Assembly (NCBI RefSeq): GCF_035046485.1
Contig: NC_085138.1
Location: 290,204,256 to 290,268,255 of the forward strand
DNA length: 64,000 nucleotides
Direction: 5' to 3'
Source of the DNA: Aedes albopictus
Lineage: Eukaryota; Arthropoda; Insecta; Diptera; Culicidae
The notes under the pieces: generated by a model
Seen by the model: only the letters and a program-made list of their open reading frames with translations
Database searches by the model: none
What the model was told of the DNA's origin: nothing
Program-made: the position numbers and the translations under genes
Shown here: in pieces, positions 21,338 to 61,319 of the stretch
Layout of the letters: the number at the start of each line of letters is the position of its first letter
Position numbering within the stretch: the first letter of the stretch is position 1

Positions 21338-22310
21338 CCCAGACAACCAATTCACACGCATAACGAAGTTTACTTTCGAGTTATGCGTTCAACTAACCGT
21401 AAAAGTATCATCGCATAAAATGTTACAAATATGCCTTTTGCGTGCAAAAGTGGAGGCGATATACGTGCATTGACAGAACAAGGATTACGCTGTATGAGCT
21501 GAAGCGATATCCTCTGCGATAAACGATGTGTACTGTATTGCGACGTGATCAATCATTTTATGCGACTTGCCTCTATTAGGCAAAAAATAGCTCTCGTTGC
21601 TCCCAGTGTCAAACTCATTACCTTCGGATTAGCAAGCCACACCTTACACTTAACACCACACAATTCTTATGAAACTAGCTGATTAATCGCGATGACATTC
21701 TAATCCATCTCAAAGTTCTTCCTAATTAATTTGATTTACCTGTCGTGTCCAAATAACTCGCAGCTAAGAGTGATGTTCTGCTATTTATACTTACCATAAC
21801 CAGGTAAAAACTCTTCTAAACTTTATCATCGGCTCCGCTAAAACAGCTAATGAACACAACGGGATGGTTTTTCACATTAAATATTAAGAACTTCTCCGCA
21901 CCGAAACCACAGTGTGGCAACTTTTTCCTTGTTATCACATTGCAAATCATATTATGTACGCATAATAGATTCTCGCTTTTGTGAGTTTGTATGTAAACGT
22001 AAACAAAGTTGCTTTTGCATTTGTACGAGTTAATTGATACACTAATGCAAGTAGAGCTGTCATAACGAGATGAAATCCGCAAAATCATCGCAGTGCGCGG
22101 TAAATGCGAGTTCAAATGTTGTTGTGCGAGTTTGCTTGTGTGATTATGCGATTCAGTTTTGTGCATCGCTAAAAAGAATTGAAAAGTAATTTTTTGCGGT
22201 GAATTTTACACTTTGGTTGCAATTAGGGTTTACATTTATGCGATTGTGAGGTGTGTTAGTAAAAATATGATGAAATCTATGCATTTTTATGCGAGTTCTG
22301 GTTGTCTGGG
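21338..22310. mobile_element. 973-bp TIR element (CCCAGACAACCA) inserted in RTE
   Basis: TIRs CCCAGACAACCA (left) and its mirror ending GTTGTCTGGG (right). The flanking GA at 21336-21337 and 22311-22312 is a 2-bp TSD: removing the element with one GA restores the RTE codons T-D-G-R-E-V-I-E-K-W. GCATAA/TTATGC motifs recur near both ends. No transposase; family unnamed. Confidence 0.85.
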
Positions 22311-23369
22311 GAGGTGATCGAAAAGTGGAAGCAACACTTCGATCAGCACCTGAATCGCATGGAGAACGTAGGCACGGGAGACCACGGCAACGGAGGACCA
22401 TTCACCAGCTCAAAACCAACAAAGCAGCTGGTAAGGATGGTATCGCAGCTGAACTTCTCAAGATGGGCCCAGAAAAGTTGGCCACCTGGCTGCATCGGCT
22501 GATAGTCAGGATCTGGGAAACCGAACAGCTACCGGAGGAGTGGAAGGAAGGGGTAATCTGCCCCATTCACAAGAAAGGCGACCATTTGGAATGTGAGAAC
22601 TTCAGGGCGATCACTATTTTGAATGCTGCCTACAAAGTGCTATCCCAGATCATCTCCCGTCGTCTGTCACCTAAAACGAATGAGTTCGTGCGAAGTTATC
22701 AGGCTGGCTTCATCGACCACCGGTCGACAACGGATCAGATCTTCACCGTACGGCGAATCCTCCAGCAATGCCGTGAATACCAGGTCCCAACGCATCACCT
22801 GTTCATCGACTTCAAGGCGGCATACGACAGTATCGACCACGCAGAGCTATGGAAAATCATGGACGATAACGGCTTTCCTGGGAAGCTGACTAGACTGATT
22901 AAAGCAACGATGGACGGTGTGCAAAACTGCGTAAGGGTTTCGGGTGAACTATCCGGTTCATTCGAATCTCGCCGGGGACTGCGACAAGGTGTCGGACTCT
23001 CATGCCTACTCTTCGCTCTGGAAGGTGTGATGCGACGATCCGGGTTCAACAGCCGGGGACCGGTTTTCACAAAATCCGGTCAATTTGTGTGCTTTGCGGA
23101 CGACATGGACATTATCGCCAGAACATTTTAAACGGTTGCAGACTGCAGAGCTGTACACGCGAAGCAGCAAAGGTCGGACTGGTGGTGAATGCCTCAAAAA
23201 CAAAGTACATGCTGGTAGGTGGAACCGAACACGACCGGATCCGTCTGGGTAGTAATGTTACGATAGACAGGGATACTTTCGAGGTGGTGGAGGAATTCGT
23301 CCACCTCGGATGCATACTGACGGCTGACATCAACGCAAGTCGTGAATTTCGGAGGCGCATCATCAGCGG
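22311..23369 (+). pseudogene. RTE reverse transcriptase domain
   Basis: Runs from EVIEKWKQHFDQHLN through NKAAGKDGIAAELL, FRAITILNAAYKVLSQI, YQAGFIDHRSTTDQIF, FIDFKAAYDSI and FADDMDI to VVNASKTKYMLVGGTEHD and RRRIISG. It would prime cDNA synthesis on LINE RNA. A frameshift near 22390 and a stop at 23129-23131 followed by a frame change make it non-functional. The catalytic aspartates remain. Confidence 0.9.
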
Positions 23370-28735: not shown

Positions 28736-29180
28736 AGCCAATTATTTTTAAAACAAATATAAAAAAACTTAATTAATCCACCTATCGGTAATTGTGCCTT
28801 TCGGAAACCCATTTCAATAAAACTCAAGTGACATGGCACCAGAAATCATATCGTTTATCTGGTTTTTGATGTTTGAGCCTTAAATTCCTGAAAAGTAAAG
28901 CCATAATCTTTAATTTTGTGACCCTATCTTGGATATGCTGGTCTTCATTTTGACGTAGGACTACGTCTCTCTTTTCTATACCGGGTGTCATTCTAAATTT
29001 TCAGAAATCGGCCGCGTTACGTTTGAAGTGGAGATTTTGAGGGTTAATAACTCAGCCATTTCTCGTTGAATTTTCAAAATTTTTGCTCCAATCGATTGGA
29101 AATCTTTACACCAATTATGTCCAATATTAACATTTGCTGATTTTCAATAACAAACTATTGAAAAATTGGGAAAAGTGAAC
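28736..29180. other. No gene; dispersed-repeat-like sequence
   Basis: AT-rich with a 'taggactacgtctctc' phrase near 28965. No TIR pair found and no coding frame. Confidence 0.3.
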
Positions 29181-29234
29181 CCATGTTTATTCCAGCCAAT
29201 CACGATCGAGCACATTTTGGATGCTCCCGTCGAA

Positions 29235-29271
29235 TATAAAAGCTACTGCTTCTTCGCATCTTCCCTCATTT
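29235..29271 (+). promoter_or_regulatory. TATA/Inr promoter of unit 1
   Basis: TATAAAAG (29235-29242) with arthropod initiator TCATTT (29266-29271), whose A is 33 bases from the first T. A CCAAT motif (29200-29204) lies upstream. Confidence 0.6.
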
Positions 29272-29594
29272 GCCTTTGTCGTCTCGAGGTGAACGCATCG
29301 AACGAGAGCTGCCCACTTTCTTCGTTTGCGTTTTCGCTCATTCTTCTTTGTCGGCTCGGTGGCGGTGGTTTTTGACAAGGGTGCTGTTGCACATTCACCT
29401 TCTAACCGTCTAACGCGGCAGACCATGGAAGAGTTTCAGCATCAGATTGATCGACGGTGGTGACAGAGGCAGCAGCAAAATCGGCGGGCCAATTTTCGAC
29501 GGCTTCCAGCAAACAGCACGGAGAAATCACACACACATTGCGTGGCATGATGAATTGATTTCAATTTCTTCCTAAAACCGTCCATAATTGAAAC

Positions 29595-29610
29595 GGTTCT
29601 TTTCAGAACC
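29595..29610 (+). terminator. Histone-type 3' stem-loop, unit 1
   Basis: GGTTCTTTTCAGAACC: a perfect 6-bp stem with a TTTC loop, preceded by AAAC and followed by an A-rich stretch and TAGAGAGTTG. It matches the replication-dependent histone mRNA consensus GGYYYTTTTCAGRRCC, bound by SLBP; the purine-rich element would pair with U7 snRNA. Confidence 0.75.
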
Positions 29611-29851
29611 ATCGAAAATGCTTCCTAGAGAGTTGATTGGATAAATTTCCTCCATCGGCCGAGAAAGTATAGTGAAAACAAATAGTGAAAGATTGAATTC
29701 TTGGTGGTGGTTCAGCAACAGTGAAGGCGATTACTAATCTCATCCACGGCAGCAAGCGGCGGGCCAATTTTCGTCGGCGTTCAGCAAGGAGAAATCTAAT
29801 ACGCATTGCGTGGCATGATTAATTCTGTCTGAAATCGTTCAATATTCAAAC

Positions 29852-29867
29852 GGTTCTTTTCAGGACC
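29852..29867 (+). terminator. Histone-type 3' stem-loop, unit 1b
   Basis: GGTTCTTTTCAGGACC (one G-U pair) after CAAAC, followed by CCTCAAGAGTTG. No promoter lies between it and the previous stem-loop, so the promoter part of this unit is missing. Confidence 0.72.
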
Positions 29868-30253
29868 ATAGAAAATTATTCCTCAAGAGTTGTGAATCAG
29901 ATAATTATTTCATTCCATCGCTCGGTAAAAGTGTGGTGCAACCGAAAAGTGAAAAATTGTATGCTTGGTGGCCCCGCAACAATAATGATGCCGGCCACTG
30001 ATGATTCCACCATGAATTTAGCAACGCTTTATCCTATCCAGACCATTTTTCGTGAAACATTGTTTAATTTAATCATTTTTCGAATTAAAATAATCTTCCA
30101 ATATTTTGGTAACTTTATTCGTTAAATGAAAATGTTTTCTTTTCTCGGTTGATTAACCGTTTCAAGCGTCTGGGTGCATGCGGGCGGGACATGCAAACGA
30201 AATAAACTTGAAAGCTAGCCGAATGGGGGGAGCTTCATCTGCCAATCTAGGGA

Positions 30254-30289
30254 CATAAAAGCTGTTCCCTCTGATTTCGTTCGTCATTT
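30254..30289 (+). promoter_or_regulatory. TATA-like/Inr promoter of unit 2
   Basis: CATAAAAG (30254-30261) and TCATTT (30284-30289), spacing 32. Upstream: GGGCGGG and the octamer-like ATGCAAAC. Confidence 0.6.
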
Positions 30290-30485
30290 TCGTTGGATCA
30301 GTCAGGCAGAGTGGATGTCACCTCCACAGCTGAGCAGTGCCACATCAACCCAGCCGCATCCATGGCAGAAAGCGGCGTACCAGTTTTCGGTGGCATCCTG
30401 TGTTTAGCAAGGAGAAAATCAACACACATTGCGTGACATGATGTTTTCATGCCATTTCGTTTCTAAAATCGTCAAAAAATCAAAC

Positions 30486-30501
30486 GGTCCTTTTCAGGAC
30501 C
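30486..30501 (+). terminator. Histone-type 3' stem-loop, unit 2
   Basis: GGTCCTTTTCAGGACC, a perfect stem, in context AAAC...ACCGAAAAT, with CAAGAG 17 bases downstream (30518-30523), in the range of a histone downstream element. Predicted transcript from the Inr is about 216 nt to the stem-loop end. Confidence 0.78.
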
Positions 30502-30666
30502 ACCGAAAATAATTCCTCAAGAGTTGTAAATCAGATAATTTCATTCCACCAATCGAGAAAAGTGTGGTTCAATCGAAAACTGAAAGATTGAATTCCGGTC
30601 ACTAATCGTTCCACGCAGAATTTAGCAACGCATTATCCTATCAGAACCATTTTTCGCGAAACATTG

Positions 30667-30825
30667 GGGAGCGTCCAGAAATTACGTCACGTTTAAAGAG
30701 GGGGGTCAGCAAAGTGAGACGACCCATACAAAAAATTCAGAGGTCCCATACAAAAAGTGTGACATAGGGATGAGGAGGGGTTGAAAAAGACTAGTTTTTG
30801 TGTGCCGTAATTTAAGGACGATCCC
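30667..30825. mobile_element. 159-bp MITE in unit 2/3 spacer
   Basis: TIRs GGGAGCGTCCAGAAATTACG and (read inward from the right) GGGATCGTCCTTAAATTACG, flanked by TTG (30664-30666, 30826-30828). Sibling units read 'gaaacattgtttaatt' without interruption, confirming the 3-bp TSD. This suggests a PIF/Harbinger-like MITE. Confidence 0.85.
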
Positions 30826-31025
30826 TTGTTTAATTCTAGCATTTTTCGAATTAAAATGATCTAAATCTTTTCATATTTTGGTTACTTTATTTGTTAGATG
30901 AAAATTTCTCTCATTTCTTGGTTGAAAATCGTTTGAAGCGTCCGAAGCATGCGGGGCGGGTCATGCAATCGAAATGAACTGGAGAGCCAGCCGAATGGGA
31001 GGAGCTTCATCTGATAATCTAGGGG

Positions 31026-31061
31026 CATAAAAGCTGTTCCCTCTGTTTTCTTTCGTCATTT
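31026..31061 (+). promoter_or_regulatory. TATA-like/Inr promoter of unit 3
   Basis: CATAAAAG (31026-31033) and TCATTT (31056-31061), spacing 32, same upstream block as unit 2. Confidence 0.6.
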
Positions 31062-31339
31062 TCGTTGGATCAGTCAGGGAGGGTGGAGGTGGATATCACG
31101 TCCACGGCTGCGCAGCAGTACGTCAACTGCGACGAGTGATAGCACCAGGAATCTCATCCACTGATCACGGTTGCGGTGGGCCCGGCAATGGAAGTTACCT
31201 CCGGAGCTGGGTAGCTGCGCACCAACCCAGCGACGACTCTAGACTATCTATCTGGTAGAACCAGGAATCTTATTCACGGCAGCAGGCGGCGGCAGTTTTC
31301 GATGGCTTCCCGCATTCAGTGCGGATAATTTTCAATAGT

Positions 31340-31458
31340 CTATTTTACGAAACGACAACAGTGTTGATATTGATCAACACTCACTTGGGCGCAACCTCCT
31401 GTCAAATTTTAATTCATGAAATAAGCGATCAGCTGATCCGAAACGTCTCGTAAAATAG
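31340..31458. mobile_element. 119-bp MITE in unit 3
   Basis: CTATTTTACGAAACG at the left and CGTCTCGTAAAATAG at the right form TIRs; an internal GTTGAT..ATCAAC hairpin follows the left end. TSD not resolved. It lengthens unit 3 between promoter and stem-loop. Confidence 0.65.
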
Positions 31459-31493
31459 CTCATTGTCTTTCTAAAATCAACCGTTATTTGAAC

Positions 31494-31509
31494 GGACCTT
31501 TTCAGGACC
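31494..31509 (+). terminator. Histone-type 3' stem-loop, unit 3
   Basis: GGACCTTTTCAGGACC: five of six stem pairs keep pairing (one A-A mismatch). Followed by GAGAAAATTATTCCTTAAGAG. Confidence 0.65.
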
Positions 31510-31903
31510 AGAGAAAATTATTCCTTAAGAGTTATAAATCGGTTAATTTTCGGATATATTCCATCAATCTGTAAAAGTGTAGTGCATTCGAAAAGTAAAT
31601 GGTTGAATGCTTTGTGGCTCAGCAACAGCAAAATCGATCACTAATTTTTCTACACGAAATTTAGCAACGCATTATCTTATTCGGACAATTGTGCCTGGAA
31701 CATTGTTTCATTCTAATATTTATCGAATTTAAATGATCTTAACTATGCAATACTTCATTTAGTTTATCCGTTCGATTAGAAATTGTCTCAAAGAACTGTT
31801 GATTAGTCGTTTGAAGCGTCTCACACAATGTGGGCGGGTCATGCAAACGGAATAAACTGGAAAGCCCGCCGAATGGGAGGAGCTTCATCTGCTAATCTAG
31901 GGG

Positions 31904-31946
31904 TATAACTATTAACAGTTGTTTCATCTGTTATCTTTCGTTATTT
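31904..31946 (+). promoter_or_regulatory. Decayed promoter of unit 4
   Basis: TATAACT (31904-31910) and TTATTT (31941-31946) at the equivalent places, spacing 39; the upstream block GCCGAATGGGAGGAGCTTC is conserved. Probably weakened. Confidence 0.4.
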
Positions 31947-32147
31947 TCCTTGGATCAGTAAAGGAGAAGGGAGATGTCACCTCCCAGCTAGGCAGCAGCA
32001 CACTAACTCAGCGATGACTCTCGGCTATCGTGGTGGCAGCACCAGGAATTTCATCCACGATAGCAAACGGCCGCATTCAGTATGTGTAAAGTCGCATTGC
32101 GTGATGAATTCATGCAATGTCTTGGCAAAATCTTCCATTTTATAAAC

Positions 32148-32163
32148 GGTCTTTTCCAGGATC
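32148..32163 (+). terminator. Decayed histone-type stem-loop, unit 4
   Basis: GGTCTTTTCCAGGATC retains the context AAAC...AGCGAAAATG but the stem has mismatches and the loop is shifted. About 221 nt from the unit 4 Inr. Confidence 0.45.
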
Positions 32164-32258
32164 AGCGAAAATGATTCCTCGAGAGTTATGATTCGGACAA
32201 TTAATAGCGACAGACTAAAAGCTTGGTAGTTCAGCAATAGTGAAGTCGGCCACTTATA

Positions 32259-32663
32259 TCGTCGGTTTCCTGCAATAGGGGCACAACTCAAAAAATGTGA
32301 ATTTTCAGAATGAGCGTTTGAAAATTGGCAATCTCGAAGCACCTCCTACAAGTTCACTTATTTCTCTCATTATCCGACAAAAGTAAACGAATTTTGATTG
32401 TTGTATCATGGAAAGGGACTGAAGTACTATCTTTTTCATAAATTTAGGATTTATATTTTTCATCGACTATTGAAAAAGTTGACTGATTTTAAGTTGTGCC
32501 TTTATTGCGGAAAACTGGTGAAAATGCAAAAATCTCGCGTTTCTCAACGAATTTCGTAACGGGTCTTTGTGAGATGAAAGTTAACATAGTTTTTCATCAT
32601 TTGCCATCAAAATCTCAAAAATGACAAATTTTGAGTTGTGCCCCTATTGCAGGAAACCGACGA
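32259..32663. mobile_element. 405-bp TA-flanked MITE
   Basis: TIRs TCGTCGGTTTCCTGCAATAG... at the left and the exact mirror ending CCGACGA at the right, over 35 bp; TA flanks at 32257-32258 and 32664-32665. Inserted in the 3' spacer of the last unit. Confidence 0.85.
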
Positions 32664-32850
32664 TATTTTCTTCCCGGATGAACACAACGTATTGTCGAAA
32701 GAGTTTCACGTTAAACTTTAGTTGAAAAGATCTATCTAACGCCGTTCAATTATCTAATAATTTTATCCGCTCGATGAAAATTCTCTCGTAGAACAGTAAT
32801 TTGACCATTTCTCTTCAAAACGAAATAACTCTTGAACTAGTCAACATCTT

Positions 32851-34369
32851 TCCAAGTAGCCGAACCAGCTGAATAACAGCTTCTTGAGCTAAAGTTAGCT
32901 TAAGAATGATTTGTTTTACTCTTATACAGCAAAAATGTTTGTTGGGTTATGAATGCGTTCAGCGAAAGCGATCACACAACAACTTTACTCAACACATCAG
33001 TCCACCATTTGTATTATCATAACAACAAACATTGTATTATGGAAATATAAAAGTCGGAATCTCGTTCCAACCTTTGTCCTACGTCAACATTGCGGTTATG
33101 CCTCAGACATTACCCACTCCTAGTTTTTGGACTCCCGACATATTCCCCATATCAAATACACCCATATTGCATGGTTCTAGAGCCTAAAACAATATTAAAC
33201 AGCCACCATCTTGAATTTGGAGCCGCCGTCTTTGATTTTAGAGCGCCAGACATCTTCTTCATACTAAAATATACCAACTATTGCATGGTTTTAGAGCCTA
33301 AAACTCTATGAAATAGCCGCCATCTTGAATTTGGAGCCGCAATCTTAAATATAAGGCAACCATCTTGAATTTTTGACCGGCATCGTGGAATTTCTGGTCT
33401 CCAGTGTTGATCTCCGCACAAAATTCATCAACCATGCTTGATGTTACGAAAATCGTCGCAGTTTGATGTGTCGCATGATGGGGTTTGGCTCAATTTTATA
33501 AACAATGGGCCAATGGGAAGTGCCTTAAAAGTGAGTAACATTTTATGAACACGCACACACGCACACATGCATTATTACGAAACAAAAATGGAGCACTACA
33601 AATGCACACTAAAATATGGCAAATTGTAGTGGAACATTACAAATGCGTAATAAAATAGGACATCACATATGGACATATAAAACACAAAACACAGATTGTT
33701 TTGCCCTGTTACCCTAGTGGATAACGATTTTCAATGACAGGATGACGAGGTTTCATTAATGTTGATGGTCCATGAGTCAATCCTGTATCGTATTCCGTCT
33801 GGCATTCATTCGCAACATTAGTTGCTTTCATAGCTTGAGTTTTTGCATAGGAATTTCTAACCCTAAGGGGGCATCCTTGATTCAGGTGAAGACCACATTA
33901 TCAAGAAGACTTGCAGCACTGCTGAAAATCGGGAGTCACTGCTAGCAGCCCACCACGGATGAAGGTGGCACTATTTATGATAGTGTGTGTAAATTTTCAT
34001 ATTCGAACCAATGTACTCTTACACTTTTACACAAAGGTACCACCTTAGCTAACCAGGCGGCGGTGCCGTCGGTGACGCTTGCGTTGGTATGAGAACAGAG
34101 TTGCATATGTCTTCTTGATAAAGTAGTCTTCGATTCAGGGTTCAATACGAGACGTTAACACTTTGATGTCCCTATTAGGGAACGATTCACTTAATTCATA
34201 GTTGATTTTTGCCCGAAATGGCCTGAAAGTAGGCCATCAAAATGAGATTGAAGAGATCTCATGGTGCTCTTTTGTTTCAGAGCACTATAAATGTACATTA
34301 AACTTAGGAACATGTTAACATTTTAAAATAGCACATTCAACACAAAAATAAAACTTGTAATAGCATACA
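32851..34369. repeat. No gene; GCCATCTTGAATTT repeats and unassigned DNA
   Basis: 33160-33400 holds two or more copies of 'agcctaaaac..gccrccatcttgaatttggagccgc', a dispersed tandem-like repeat. 33540-33570 is a CACACGCACACA run. The remainder is unassigned and non-coding. Confidence 0.4.
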
Positions 34370-60280: not shown

Positions 60281-60865
60281 AGTTATACAAATCACATTCT
60301 ACGCTTCTTTGTACAGTTGATACAACTCATGACACATGTACCTGCACCACTTACTATTTTCTTAAATTTTGCTGAGAATTATCTACAGGTTGTTATGTTA
60401 AAAAACTACGAAAGCTTTTCGGCTAACCTACTTTTACCGCTGATGAGTGTCACTGGAAACATCAGCGTTTTATGCAGAGCGAACTCCGCTTGGGTTTGCA
60501 AGTAACGGGGCCTAAGCTGGTGCAATACGTCTTTCTACTTCACATGAAACGTCATCGCCACACGTTACAAATGTTTCCACACACCCAAACTCTTGAACAT
60601 CATCCTTATCAATCAACACCTCAGCACTAACACCACTGGATATTGATCGAGTTTATTGTCAAGCATTCTTCACTGTCTCTCTTTTCAGAGGAGCAAAACC
60701 TTCCTCCACAGGTCTACAGTCGATGTAGATGAGATCAATATCATCCGTGAAACAGAGAAGCATGGGCGATCTTGTGATGTAGTGACATTTCTCTGTATAC
60801 CAGACCTCATGATTGCTACTTTGAGTGCAATGTAGAACAGTTAATTTGAACAAGCATCACTGTTA
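60281..60865. other. No gene recognised
   Basis: Unassigned sequence between the TA element and the tRNA-like pair; only short frames. Confidence 0.3.
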
Positions 60866-60935
60866 TGGTGGGATTCGAACCCACGACTCCGTATCGTTAG
60901 TCCGGCGCTTTAACCAGGTAAGACACGGCACAAGT
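60866..60935 (-). mobile_element. tRNA-like sequence, minus orientation
   Basis: Minus strand: GTCTTACCTGGTTAAAGC, an anticodon-like arm around CTAACGA and a perfect T arm GTGGGTTCGAATCCCAC. No acceptor stem can be built, so it is tRNA-derived rather than a tRNA gene. Confidence 0.6.
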
Positions 60936-61047
60936 TACAATTGCCCCATAAGACGAAAAAGAGATAAAATTGTGAAAGACGAACCCGATCAGGGTGGTGC
61001 TTCGAATACAGTTTGACTTTCTATTTCACAGAATCGCCACTTGCTCT

Positions 61048-61107
61048 GTGGCTTACTTGGTTAAAGCACCGTACTAGCGATACGGAGTCCAGGGTTCGGA
61101 TCCCACC
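61048..61107 (+). mobile_element. tRNA-like sequence, plus orientation
   Basis: A box TGGCTTACTTGG, anticodon-like arm CCGTACTAGCGATACGG (perfect 5-bp stem, AGC in the loop), B box GGTTCGGATCC. Sister of the minus-strand copy at 60866-60935, in inverted arrangement. No acceptor stem in the expected place. Confidence 0.6.
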
Positions 61108-61319
61108 ACAACAAGTGATAATTTTTTTTTACAAATTCATCTCTCAATTAGTCAATTAAACACACACTGTGTCTTTAAAATTTGAGTTTTTTGAGCCGAT
61201 AGGTTCAGCCGGTAAAGCGCAATAAAATTATCTGCTTGGATTCTGGACTCTAGCATGCGCAGCTTTTTATTTTTTCTCACTCACTCTAGTAAACAAACAC
61301 GTGAAAGAAACAGATAATA
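61108..61319. other. No gene recognised
   Basis: AT-rich; 'ggttcagccggtaaagcgc' (61201-61219) is weakly tRNA-like. Confidence 0.25.

What the first reader, a model, noticed from the sequence alone, without database searches (positions are those of the whole stretch)
29190..32850. Array of short TATA/Inr units ending in histone-type 3' stem-loops but with no histone ORF
Seen directly: five stem-loops fit or nearly fit the replication-dependent histone mRNA consensus (29595, 29852, 30486, 31494, 32148). The first four are well kept, and all are followed by a conserved purine-rich CAAGAG-like element where U7 snRNA would pair. Four upstream promoter blocks place TATAAAAG/CATAAAAG 32-33 bases before TCATTT initiators in the three best. 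Two spans from initiator to stem-loop are about 220 nt, too short for any core histone. Known: SLBP and U7 normally act on histone mRNAs. Inference: these are either histone-derived genes that lost their coding part while both signals stayed, or a family of short, non-polyadenylated, S-phase RNAs. Conservation of promoter and 3' signal rather than middle sequence favours selection on, or amplification of, a transcription unit.
Basis: partly seen in the sequence, partly recalled or inferred. Interest (0 to 1): 0.88.

Follow-up and report, generated by a model that had tools for sequence, protein, structure and literature searches.

The report
Transposons ending transcripts like histone genes
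The array is part of a rolling-circle jumping element scattered through this insect genome, and the element's relatives that still carry transposase genes appear to end those messages with the special stem-loop that animals otherwise keep for histone messages, which would tie a transposon to DNA replication in the cell cycle.

Summary
Five histone-type stem-loops (SL) lie where stated, each with AGAGTT exactly 19 nt behind the stem; two stems (31494, 32148) are weak. The array is not a host gene cluster. It is the inside of a 4.18 kb dispersed element (28948-33128) with the ends of a non-autonomous Helentron (HINE). Its 33-nt 5' end has 474 exact copies. Promoters of units 3-5 align best to H2B promoters; no histone coding sequence was found. 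Helentrons of the same genome that still carry helicase-endonuclease (transposase) genes, in open frames up to 1,703 aa, have the same SL plus purine element behind that gene: 36 of 37 exact SL sites lie within 1.3 kb downstream of it on the same strand. One of them shares the window element's 3' end; in the 640 nt compared, only that end and the SL block are alike. Another Helentron has three SLs, one behind a degenerate H2B gene. Best reading: these Helentrons captured H2B signals and form transposase mRNA 3' ends by the SLBP/U7 route; the window units are leftovers of promoter plus SL. RNA processing is inferred, not shown. I found no report of this; histone-gene capture by a Culex Helentron is known.

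The parts
28948..33128 (+). Whole non-autonomous Helentron (HINE) copy that contains the array
   Evidence: Besides the window, 20 5' ends and 10 3' ends at these points were read in the fetched loci, with unrelated flanks
28952..28967 (.). 5' palindromic subterminal repeat GACGTAGGACTACGTC, preceded by TTTT
   Evidence: 33-nt 5' end pattern has 474 exact genome matches, reversed control 0
29032..29348 (+). 5' promoter block shared with the Helentron in L010 (71% of 339 columns)
   Evidence: unit 1 promoter also aligns to the 200 nt upstream of the H2B-like genes of L017 and L010, z 17.6 and 12.0
29235..29271 (+). Unit 1 core promoter: TATAAAAG 29235, TCATTT 29266
29595..29634 (+). Unit 1 histone-type stem-loop (29595-29610) and downstream element AGAGTT (29629-29634)
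   Evidence: RF00032 27.9 bits
29852..29891 (+). Unit 2 stem-loop (29852-29867) and AGAGTT (29886-29891); no promoter of its own
   Evidence: RF00032 28.1 bits
30182..30310 (+). Unit 3 H2B-type promoter: CATGCAAACG 30190, CATAAAAG 30254, TCATTT 30284
   Evidence: the six best alignments of 21 promoters compared are the six H2B promoters, z 3.5 to 11.9; best other z 3.2
30486..30525 (+). Unit 3 stem-loop (30486-30501) and AGAGTT (30520-30525)
   Evidence: RF00032 36.7 bits, over gathering score
30954..31085 (+). Unit 4 H2B-type promoter: CATAAAAG 31026, TCATTT 31056
   Evidence: z 12.9 to the L017 H2B promoter
31342..31461 (.). Nested insertion with 22-nt inverted arms in unit 4, absent from other copies aligned there
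31494..31533 (+). Unit 4 stem-loop (one mismatch) and AGAGTT
   Evidence: RF00032 15.6 bits, E 2.7
31832..31960 (+). Unit 5 decayed H2B-type promoter (GTATAACTAT 31903)
   Evidence: z 10.7 to host H2B promoter in L012
32148..32187 (+). Unit 5 stem-loop (wobble pairs, loop TTCC) and AGAGTT
   Evidence: not in the Rfam table
32260..32662 (.). Nested insertion with 54-nt inverted arms, absent from other copies aligned there
33076..33087 (.). 3' subterminal repeat GTCCTACGTCAA, inverted copy of 28950-28961
33094..33128 (.). 3' palindrome (33094-33114), CTAG end (33120-33123) and T-run
   Evidence: palindrome carries one change in this copy and folds weakly

Best explanation
The array is the interior of a non-autonomous Helentron (HINE). 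The Helentrons of this genome carry histone-type expression signals: promoters like those of H2B genes and histone stem-loops with a U7-type downstream element at gene ends. They most likely took these from a captured H2B gene, which survives as a degenerate H2B-like gene in one Helentron family. In copies with a transposase gene the signals would give the helicase-endonuclease mRNA an SLBP-bound, non-polyadenylated 3' end made by the histone cleavage machinery and so limit transposase to S phase. Shown from sequence: element identity, 3' end shared with a transposase-bearing element, SL plus AGAGTT a short way behind transposase genes in several Helentron groups, H2B-like promoters. Inferred: U7/SLBP processing, S-phase timing, rolling-circle spread, and that the window units (promoter plus SL, no ORF) are reduced genes that may still give short SL-ended RNAs.
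For: Common ends with unrelated flanks, T-runs, palindromic subterminal repeats and 3' palindrome fit the Helentron description in PMC4067079. 5' end: 474 exact genome copies, control 0. L056, behind a 1574-aa open frame, has an SL of 36.7 bits and the same 3' end as the window element; between L056:1-640 and the window element the matches at E < 1e-3 are the 3' end (93% of 55 nt) and the SL blocks (90% of 51 nt to unit 3; 76-82% to the other four). Exact SL sites downstream of the transposase match on the same strand: 27 of 28, of which 22 at 189 nt, 4 at 316, 1 at 1298, and 9 of 9 of a one-base variant at 186 nt (by hand). L059, behind a 66% group, has three SLs within 340 nt; L024 has one 0.54 kb behind (36.7 bits, position), L039 one 1.0 kb behind. 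The element in L010, L055, L054, L025 has SLs of 38.9, 37.2 and 30.3 bits: after an H2B-like gene, 8.6 kb behind the transposase match beyond tandem repeats, and 26 nt after a second endonuclease-like ORF. Unit promoters are H2B-like. Stem covariation: 38 double-change cells against 12.4 in shuffles, 97.3% paired over 79 rows. Among 20 unit copies under 85% alike, identity is 0.82 in the stem-loop, 0.73 in the downstream element, at most 0.615 in any other 16-nt window. SL plus AGAGTT pattern: 785 genome matches, reversed control 0.
Against: No RNA data: processing, missing poly(A) tail and cell-cycle timing are all untested. AATAAA occurs downstream of the SL in L024 and L025 (sequence) and the window element has four AATAAA/ATTAAA sites, so polyadenylation is open; L056 has none between stop and element end. 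In several loci the nearest scored SL is far behind the transposase match (2.5-12.6 kb for L024's second, L025, L026, L029, L031, L040, L041), so its link to that gene is less sure. In the L010-L025 element the transposase lies in three separate frames, so that copy may be dead; a 98% copy has a 1689-aa frame. Two window stems are weak. Two of five covariation measures do not exceed shuffles (pairs with double change 54/500 and 111/500, further pair types 485/500 and 482/500), and relatedness inflates the others. Rfam U7 search found nothing (said to be uninformative). The 5' end of the element of L056 was not read, and by eye no transposase match on C1 has a listed exact HINE 5' end a few kb upstream in the same orientation. 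46 of 100 listed SL-pattern sites on C1 could not be tied to a HINE 5' end or a transposase.
Confidence: 0.78

Rival explanations
1. Passive cargo: the signals were dragged along with a captured H2B gene and amplified by transposition; no Helentron transcript is now ended by them.
For: HINE copies multiply whatever they carry; two of five window stems are weak; a Culex Helentron carries histone gene fragments (PMC4067079).
Against: SL and downstream element stand behind transposases that are only 66-68% identical to that of L055, show compensatory changes (with the limits told above), and are the only interior block shared by L056:1-640 and the window element.
Confidence: 0.16
2. The window units are functional in their own right: short SL-ended non-coding RNAs that Helentron or host uses, for example as SLBP decoys or as templates in transposition.
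For: Two weak SL matches without recognised ORF lie at the 5' side of the element in L010 (model R1, 31.8 and 30.9 bits), and two transposase-bearing elements on C1 each have two SL sites 6.8-9.4 kb upstream of the end of the transposase match; TATA and initiator are kept in three units.
Against: Unit number and spacing vary between copies; no other strongly conserved block was seen in the units; no RNA data.
Confidence: 0.2
3. The hairpin acts as DNA, as an internal stop or nick signal in rolling-circle transposition, not as RNA.
For: Helentrons have a palindrome near their 3' end (PMC4067079); the SL is a hairpin inside the element.
Against: It has loop, flanks and downstream element like the host's own histone genes, lies behind genes on the sense strand, and the element has a separate 3' palindrome at its end.
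Confidence: 0.04
4. A local cluster of histone pseudogenes.
For: Histone promoters and 3' signals without ORF.
Against: The array recurs with the same ends and unrelated flanks across the genome and has no histone coding remnant.
Confidence: 0.01

Closest known systems
Helentron-Cq-32A of Culex quinquefasciatus and HINE elements (Thomas et al. 2014, PMC4067079; passages read)
   Same: Palindromic subterminal repeats, 3' palindrome, T-strings at the ends, tandem repeats in non-autonomous copies, captured histone gene fragments (there H4 and H1/H5).
   Different: Word searches of its main text give no 'stem-loop', 'promoter', 'UTR' or 'polyadenylation'; here histone signals stand behind transposase genes and the captured gene is H2B-like.
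Replication-dependent histone genes (Rfam RF00032 3' stem-loop, U7-type downstream element)
   Same: Stem-loop; spacing to the purine element (17-18 nt to AAAGA in the six distinct true stem-loops printed, 15 in the L003 H2B by eye; 19 nt to AGAGTT in the window); TATA plus initiator; stop-to-stem 21 and 26 nt in the H2B-like and second endonuclease genes (by hand).
   Different: No histone product in the window units; the transposase gene appears to have short introns in its 5' part (inferred from L057).
DINE-1/INE-1 of Drosophila (PMC4067079)
   Same: Non-autonomous Helentron-type ends and internal repeats.
   Different: No histone signals are mentioned in the passages read.

Membership tests
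Helentron/HINE | Palindromic subterminal repeat a few nt from the 5' end | tested here: met
   GACGTAGGACTACGTC at 28952-28967, 4 nt from the end
Helentron/HINE | Inverted subterminal repeat about 38-60 bp from the 3' end (range given for mite elements) | tested here: met
   GTCCTACGTCAA ends 36 nt before the end of CTAG and 41 nt before the T-run end; range from PMC4067079
Helentron/HINE | Palindrome near the 3' end | tested here: met
   GGTTATGTCTCAGACATTACC in 9 of 10 other 3' ends read; one change and weak fold in the window copy
Helentron/HINE | T-strings at both boundaries, T-rich target | tested here: met
   TTTT at 18 of 20 other 5' ends and TTTTT at 9 of 10 other 3' ends read
Helentron/HINE | Autonomous partner with Rep/helicase plus endonuclease and shared ends | tested here: inconclusive
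   3' end shared with L056, 93% of 55 nt, behind a helicase-endonuclease frame; Rep domain scanned only in L055; 5' end of the L056 element not read
Helentron/HINE | Rolling-circle transposition | not testable with these tools
   inferred from structure
Replication-dependent histone 3' end | Stem-loop of the metazoan consensus | tested here: met
   RF00032: window unit 3 36.7 bits, L056 36.7, L010 38.9, L025 37.2 and 30.3; window units 1, 2, 4 below gathering score, unit 5 not listed
Replication-dependent histone 3' end | Downstream purine element at fixed distance, pairing to U7 | tested here: inconclusive
   Element and distance met; a U7-like AACTCTTTTAGGAATTTGTCTAG is present, but Rfam U7 found nothing
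Replication-dependent histone 3' end | SLBP binding, cleavage, no poly(A) tail | not testable with these tools
   needs RNA and protein data
Histone gene | Histone coding sequence between promoter and stem-loop | tested here: not met
   No match better than E 0.24 with five histones

The most novel reading that the evidence does not exclude
Helentrons have taken over the histone mRNA route: their genes, transposase included, end in SLBP/U7-processed stem-loops, so transposase appears only in S phase and in egg cytoplasm stocked with histone-type mRNAs. An LTR retrotransposon (BEL/Pao type as I recall) of the same genome has independently placed a canonical histone stem-loop in its LTR, so use of this route by mobile elements may be a general tactic.
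Probability: 0.5. Interest if true: 0.93.

Novelty: new variant of a known kind. Interest (0 to 1): 0.85.

Why it matters
The histone stem-loop is held (from general knowledge) to be nearly exclusive to replication-dependent histone mRNAs. Its place behind transposase genes would be a mobile element using the cell's poly(A)-independent mRNA 3' end, and would give a direct way to tie rolling-circle transposition to DNA replication. It would also explain why poly(A)-selected RNA-seq could miss such transposase messages, and gives natural, diverse non-histone substrates for SLBP and U7.

Tried and rejected
Histone pseudogene cluster or local host gene family: rejected, since the array recurs with the same ends and different flanks. 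Broken histone CDS in the middle: rejected. Short conserved peptide in the units: by eye the ATGs in the units give no shared frame (no statistics). U7 gene: RF00066 gave nothing and the tool calls this uninformative; the pattern AACTCTT-N(3,20)-AATTTGTCTNG gave 15 matches against 1 in the reversed control, letters shown for only some, one with the U7 arrangement as I recall it; left open. Rfam hits other than RF00032 are below gathering score and were ignored. Pfam found no histone domain in the H2B-like ORFs of L010 and L017. Literature: no paper with helitron + histone stem-loop or helitron + SLBP; helentron + histone gave 17 papers (15 listed), of which I read passages of PMC4067079 only. 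The other searches were seen only as listings with starts of abstracts (20 of 40 papers listed); nothing on transposons with histone-type ends showed there. The library lacks most subscription journals.
Full report
Check of the observation. Rfam's own histone model finds four, one over its gathering score. A shuffle control gives 4 such sites in 100 shuffled windows against 5 in the real one. Units 4 and 5 fold weakly.

What it is. I sort them as 31 in histone gene arrays (15 in fetched loci with histone ORFs; 16 not fetched, assigned because they lie in the arrays C201 and C1234), 34 in Helentron-type loci and 8 in an LTR element; the assignment of L036 among the 34 is weak, and the LTR loci were grouped by shared SL flanks or by their open frames, of which one was scanned. 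Of the sites scored, the two best (L001, L002, 40.6 bits) are relatives of the window array, not histone genes. The array recurs with the same ends (window 28948 and 33128) and unrelated flanks: 20 further 5' ends and 10 further 3' ends were read. The ends match the Helentron/HINE description: T-runs, palindromic subterminal repeat, its inverted copy 36-41 nt from the 3' end, 3' palindrome (PMC4067079). The 33-nt 5' end has 474 exact copies, control 0. The window copy bears two nested insertions, 31342-31461 and 32260-32662, absent from the other copies aligned there.

Where the signals come from. Promoters of units 3, 4 and 5 align best to H2B promoters (21 promoters compared, 200 single-base shuffles each). 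The five best of six H2B promoters gave z 6.1-11.9, 6.6-12.9 and 6.6-10.7; the sixth, L008, 3.5, 4.6 and 4.5. The best promoter of another histone gave 3.2, 3.2 and 2.1; the H2B-like genes of L010 and L017 gave at most 2.5. The unit 1 promoter instead aligns with the 200 nt upstream of the H2B-like genes of L017 and L010 (z 17.6, 12.0) and with a 5' block of L010 (71%). Short ORFs in L010 and L017 are 36% and 42% identical to the N-terminal part of H2B (E 1e-7 and 7e-9 in a comparison with 4 histones), though Pfam finds no histone domain in them. L017 also holds a near-intact H2B (92% over 121 aa; 87% DNA to a host H2B) whose frame runs on through its stem-loop; whether it lies inside the element was not determined.

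Helentrons with transposase genes. On C1, minus strand, four neighbouring stretches (L010, L055, L054, L025) hold in order two weak SL matches without recognised ORF, an H2B-like gene with SL (38.9 bits), a transposase gene with Helitron_like_N (1.4e-23), PIF1 (2.1e-27) and Exo_endo_phos (1.6e-9) domains, tandem repeats, an SL (37.2 bits) 8.6 kb behind the transposase match, a second endonuclease-like ORF (Exo_endo_phos 0.0033, below cut-off) and an SL (30.3 bits) 26 nt after its stop. The transposase of this copy is in three frames; a 98% copy on C3 has a 1689-aa frame. Another group (68% identical, open frames up to 1703 aa) has its SL 163 nt after the stop in L056. The exact SL string of L056 occurs 28 times in the genome, 27 of them downstream of a transposase match on the same strand (22 at 189 nt, 4 at 316, 1 at 1298); the 28th lies on a small contig without a listed match. 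The variant of L058 occurs 9 times, 9 of 9 at 186 nt (by hand). L059, behind a 66% group, has three SLs, each with a wobble first pair. In L024 one SL stands 0.54 kb and one 2.5 kb behind the transposase match; in L039 1.0 kb; in L025, L026, L029, L031, L040 and L041 the site scored is 2.8-12.6 kb behind.

Link to the window. L056 ends with the same 3' terminus as the window element (93% of 55 nt). Apart from that the only matches at E < 1e-3 between L056:1-640 and the window element are its five stem-loop blocks. Of the first 100 listed sites, all on C1, of the 785 SL-plus-AGAGTT matches, 44 lie within 6 kb downstream of an exact HINE 5' end on the same strand, 10 are linked to a transposase match, and 46 are unassigned.

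Selection. Six-pair stem: 99.1% paired cells in 18 diverse sequences, 97.3% in 79 distinct rows with 38 double-change cells against 12.4 in shuffles (alignment fitted to the model, rows related). The counts of pairs with double change and of further pair types do not exceed shuffles in either call. Among 20 units under 85% alike, out of 28 taken, the stem-loop (0.82) and downstream element (0.73) exceed every other 16-nt window (0.615).

Mechanism. Best supported: the signals form histone-type 3' ends on Helentron mRNAs and so couple transposase to S phase (inference; nothing on RNA was available). HINE units are reduced genes with promoter and terminator. Against: AATAAA after the SL in L024 and L025, four AATAAA/ATTAAA sites in the window element, weak stems in two window units, unproved U7.

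Novelty. Histone gene capture by a Culex Helentron is published (PMC4067079, passages read). Histone 3' processing of a transposon's own genes was not found, which cover only the open-access library. I rate it a new variant of a known kind, with a mechanism that would be new for transposons if confirmed.

Noticed in passing
L049 (two copies, minus strand 959 and 7860), L050, also L038, L042, L043, L047: An LTR retrotransposon (DUF5641 and a sub-cut-off integrase match in one frame of L050; BEL/Pao type as I recall) has a canonical histone stem-loop CCAAAGGCTCTTTTCAGAGCC with GAGAGTT behind it inside its LTR, downstream of a TATAAAAG. RF00032 31.7 bits, E 1.7e-4 genome-wide, in L047, L049, L050; 33.6-35.3 bits in L038, L042, L043.
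   Followed up: partly
L017, minus strand 146-605: Near-intact H2B gene close to Helentron sequence whose frame has no stop before its own histone stem-loop, so the protein would end in an extra tail.
   Followed up: partly
L013 6441-6471 and L004 604-634 (minus strand): A sequence 87% like the HINE 5' end over 31 nt, and in L012/L013 one 76% like window 32862-32947 over 87 nt, lie inside the host's own histone gene repeat, a possible trace of Helentron insertion where histone genes could be captured.
   Followed up: partly
L039 2390-2465 and L059 187-340: Tandem duplications of the stem-loop, up to three in a row and some imperfect, behind transposase genes.
   Followed up: partly
window 22289-23131: Reverse transcriptase ORF (RVT_1, 1.6e-22), probably of a non-LTR retrotransposon.
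   Followed up: no
window 60860-60932 (-) and 61042-61114 (+): Two tRNA-like genes facing away from each other, just over the Rfam cut-off (32 and 33.9 bits against 29).
   Followed up: no
L057 and L010/L055: The Helentron transposase gene seems to have short introns in its 5' part, unusual for a message with a histone-type end.
   Followed up: no
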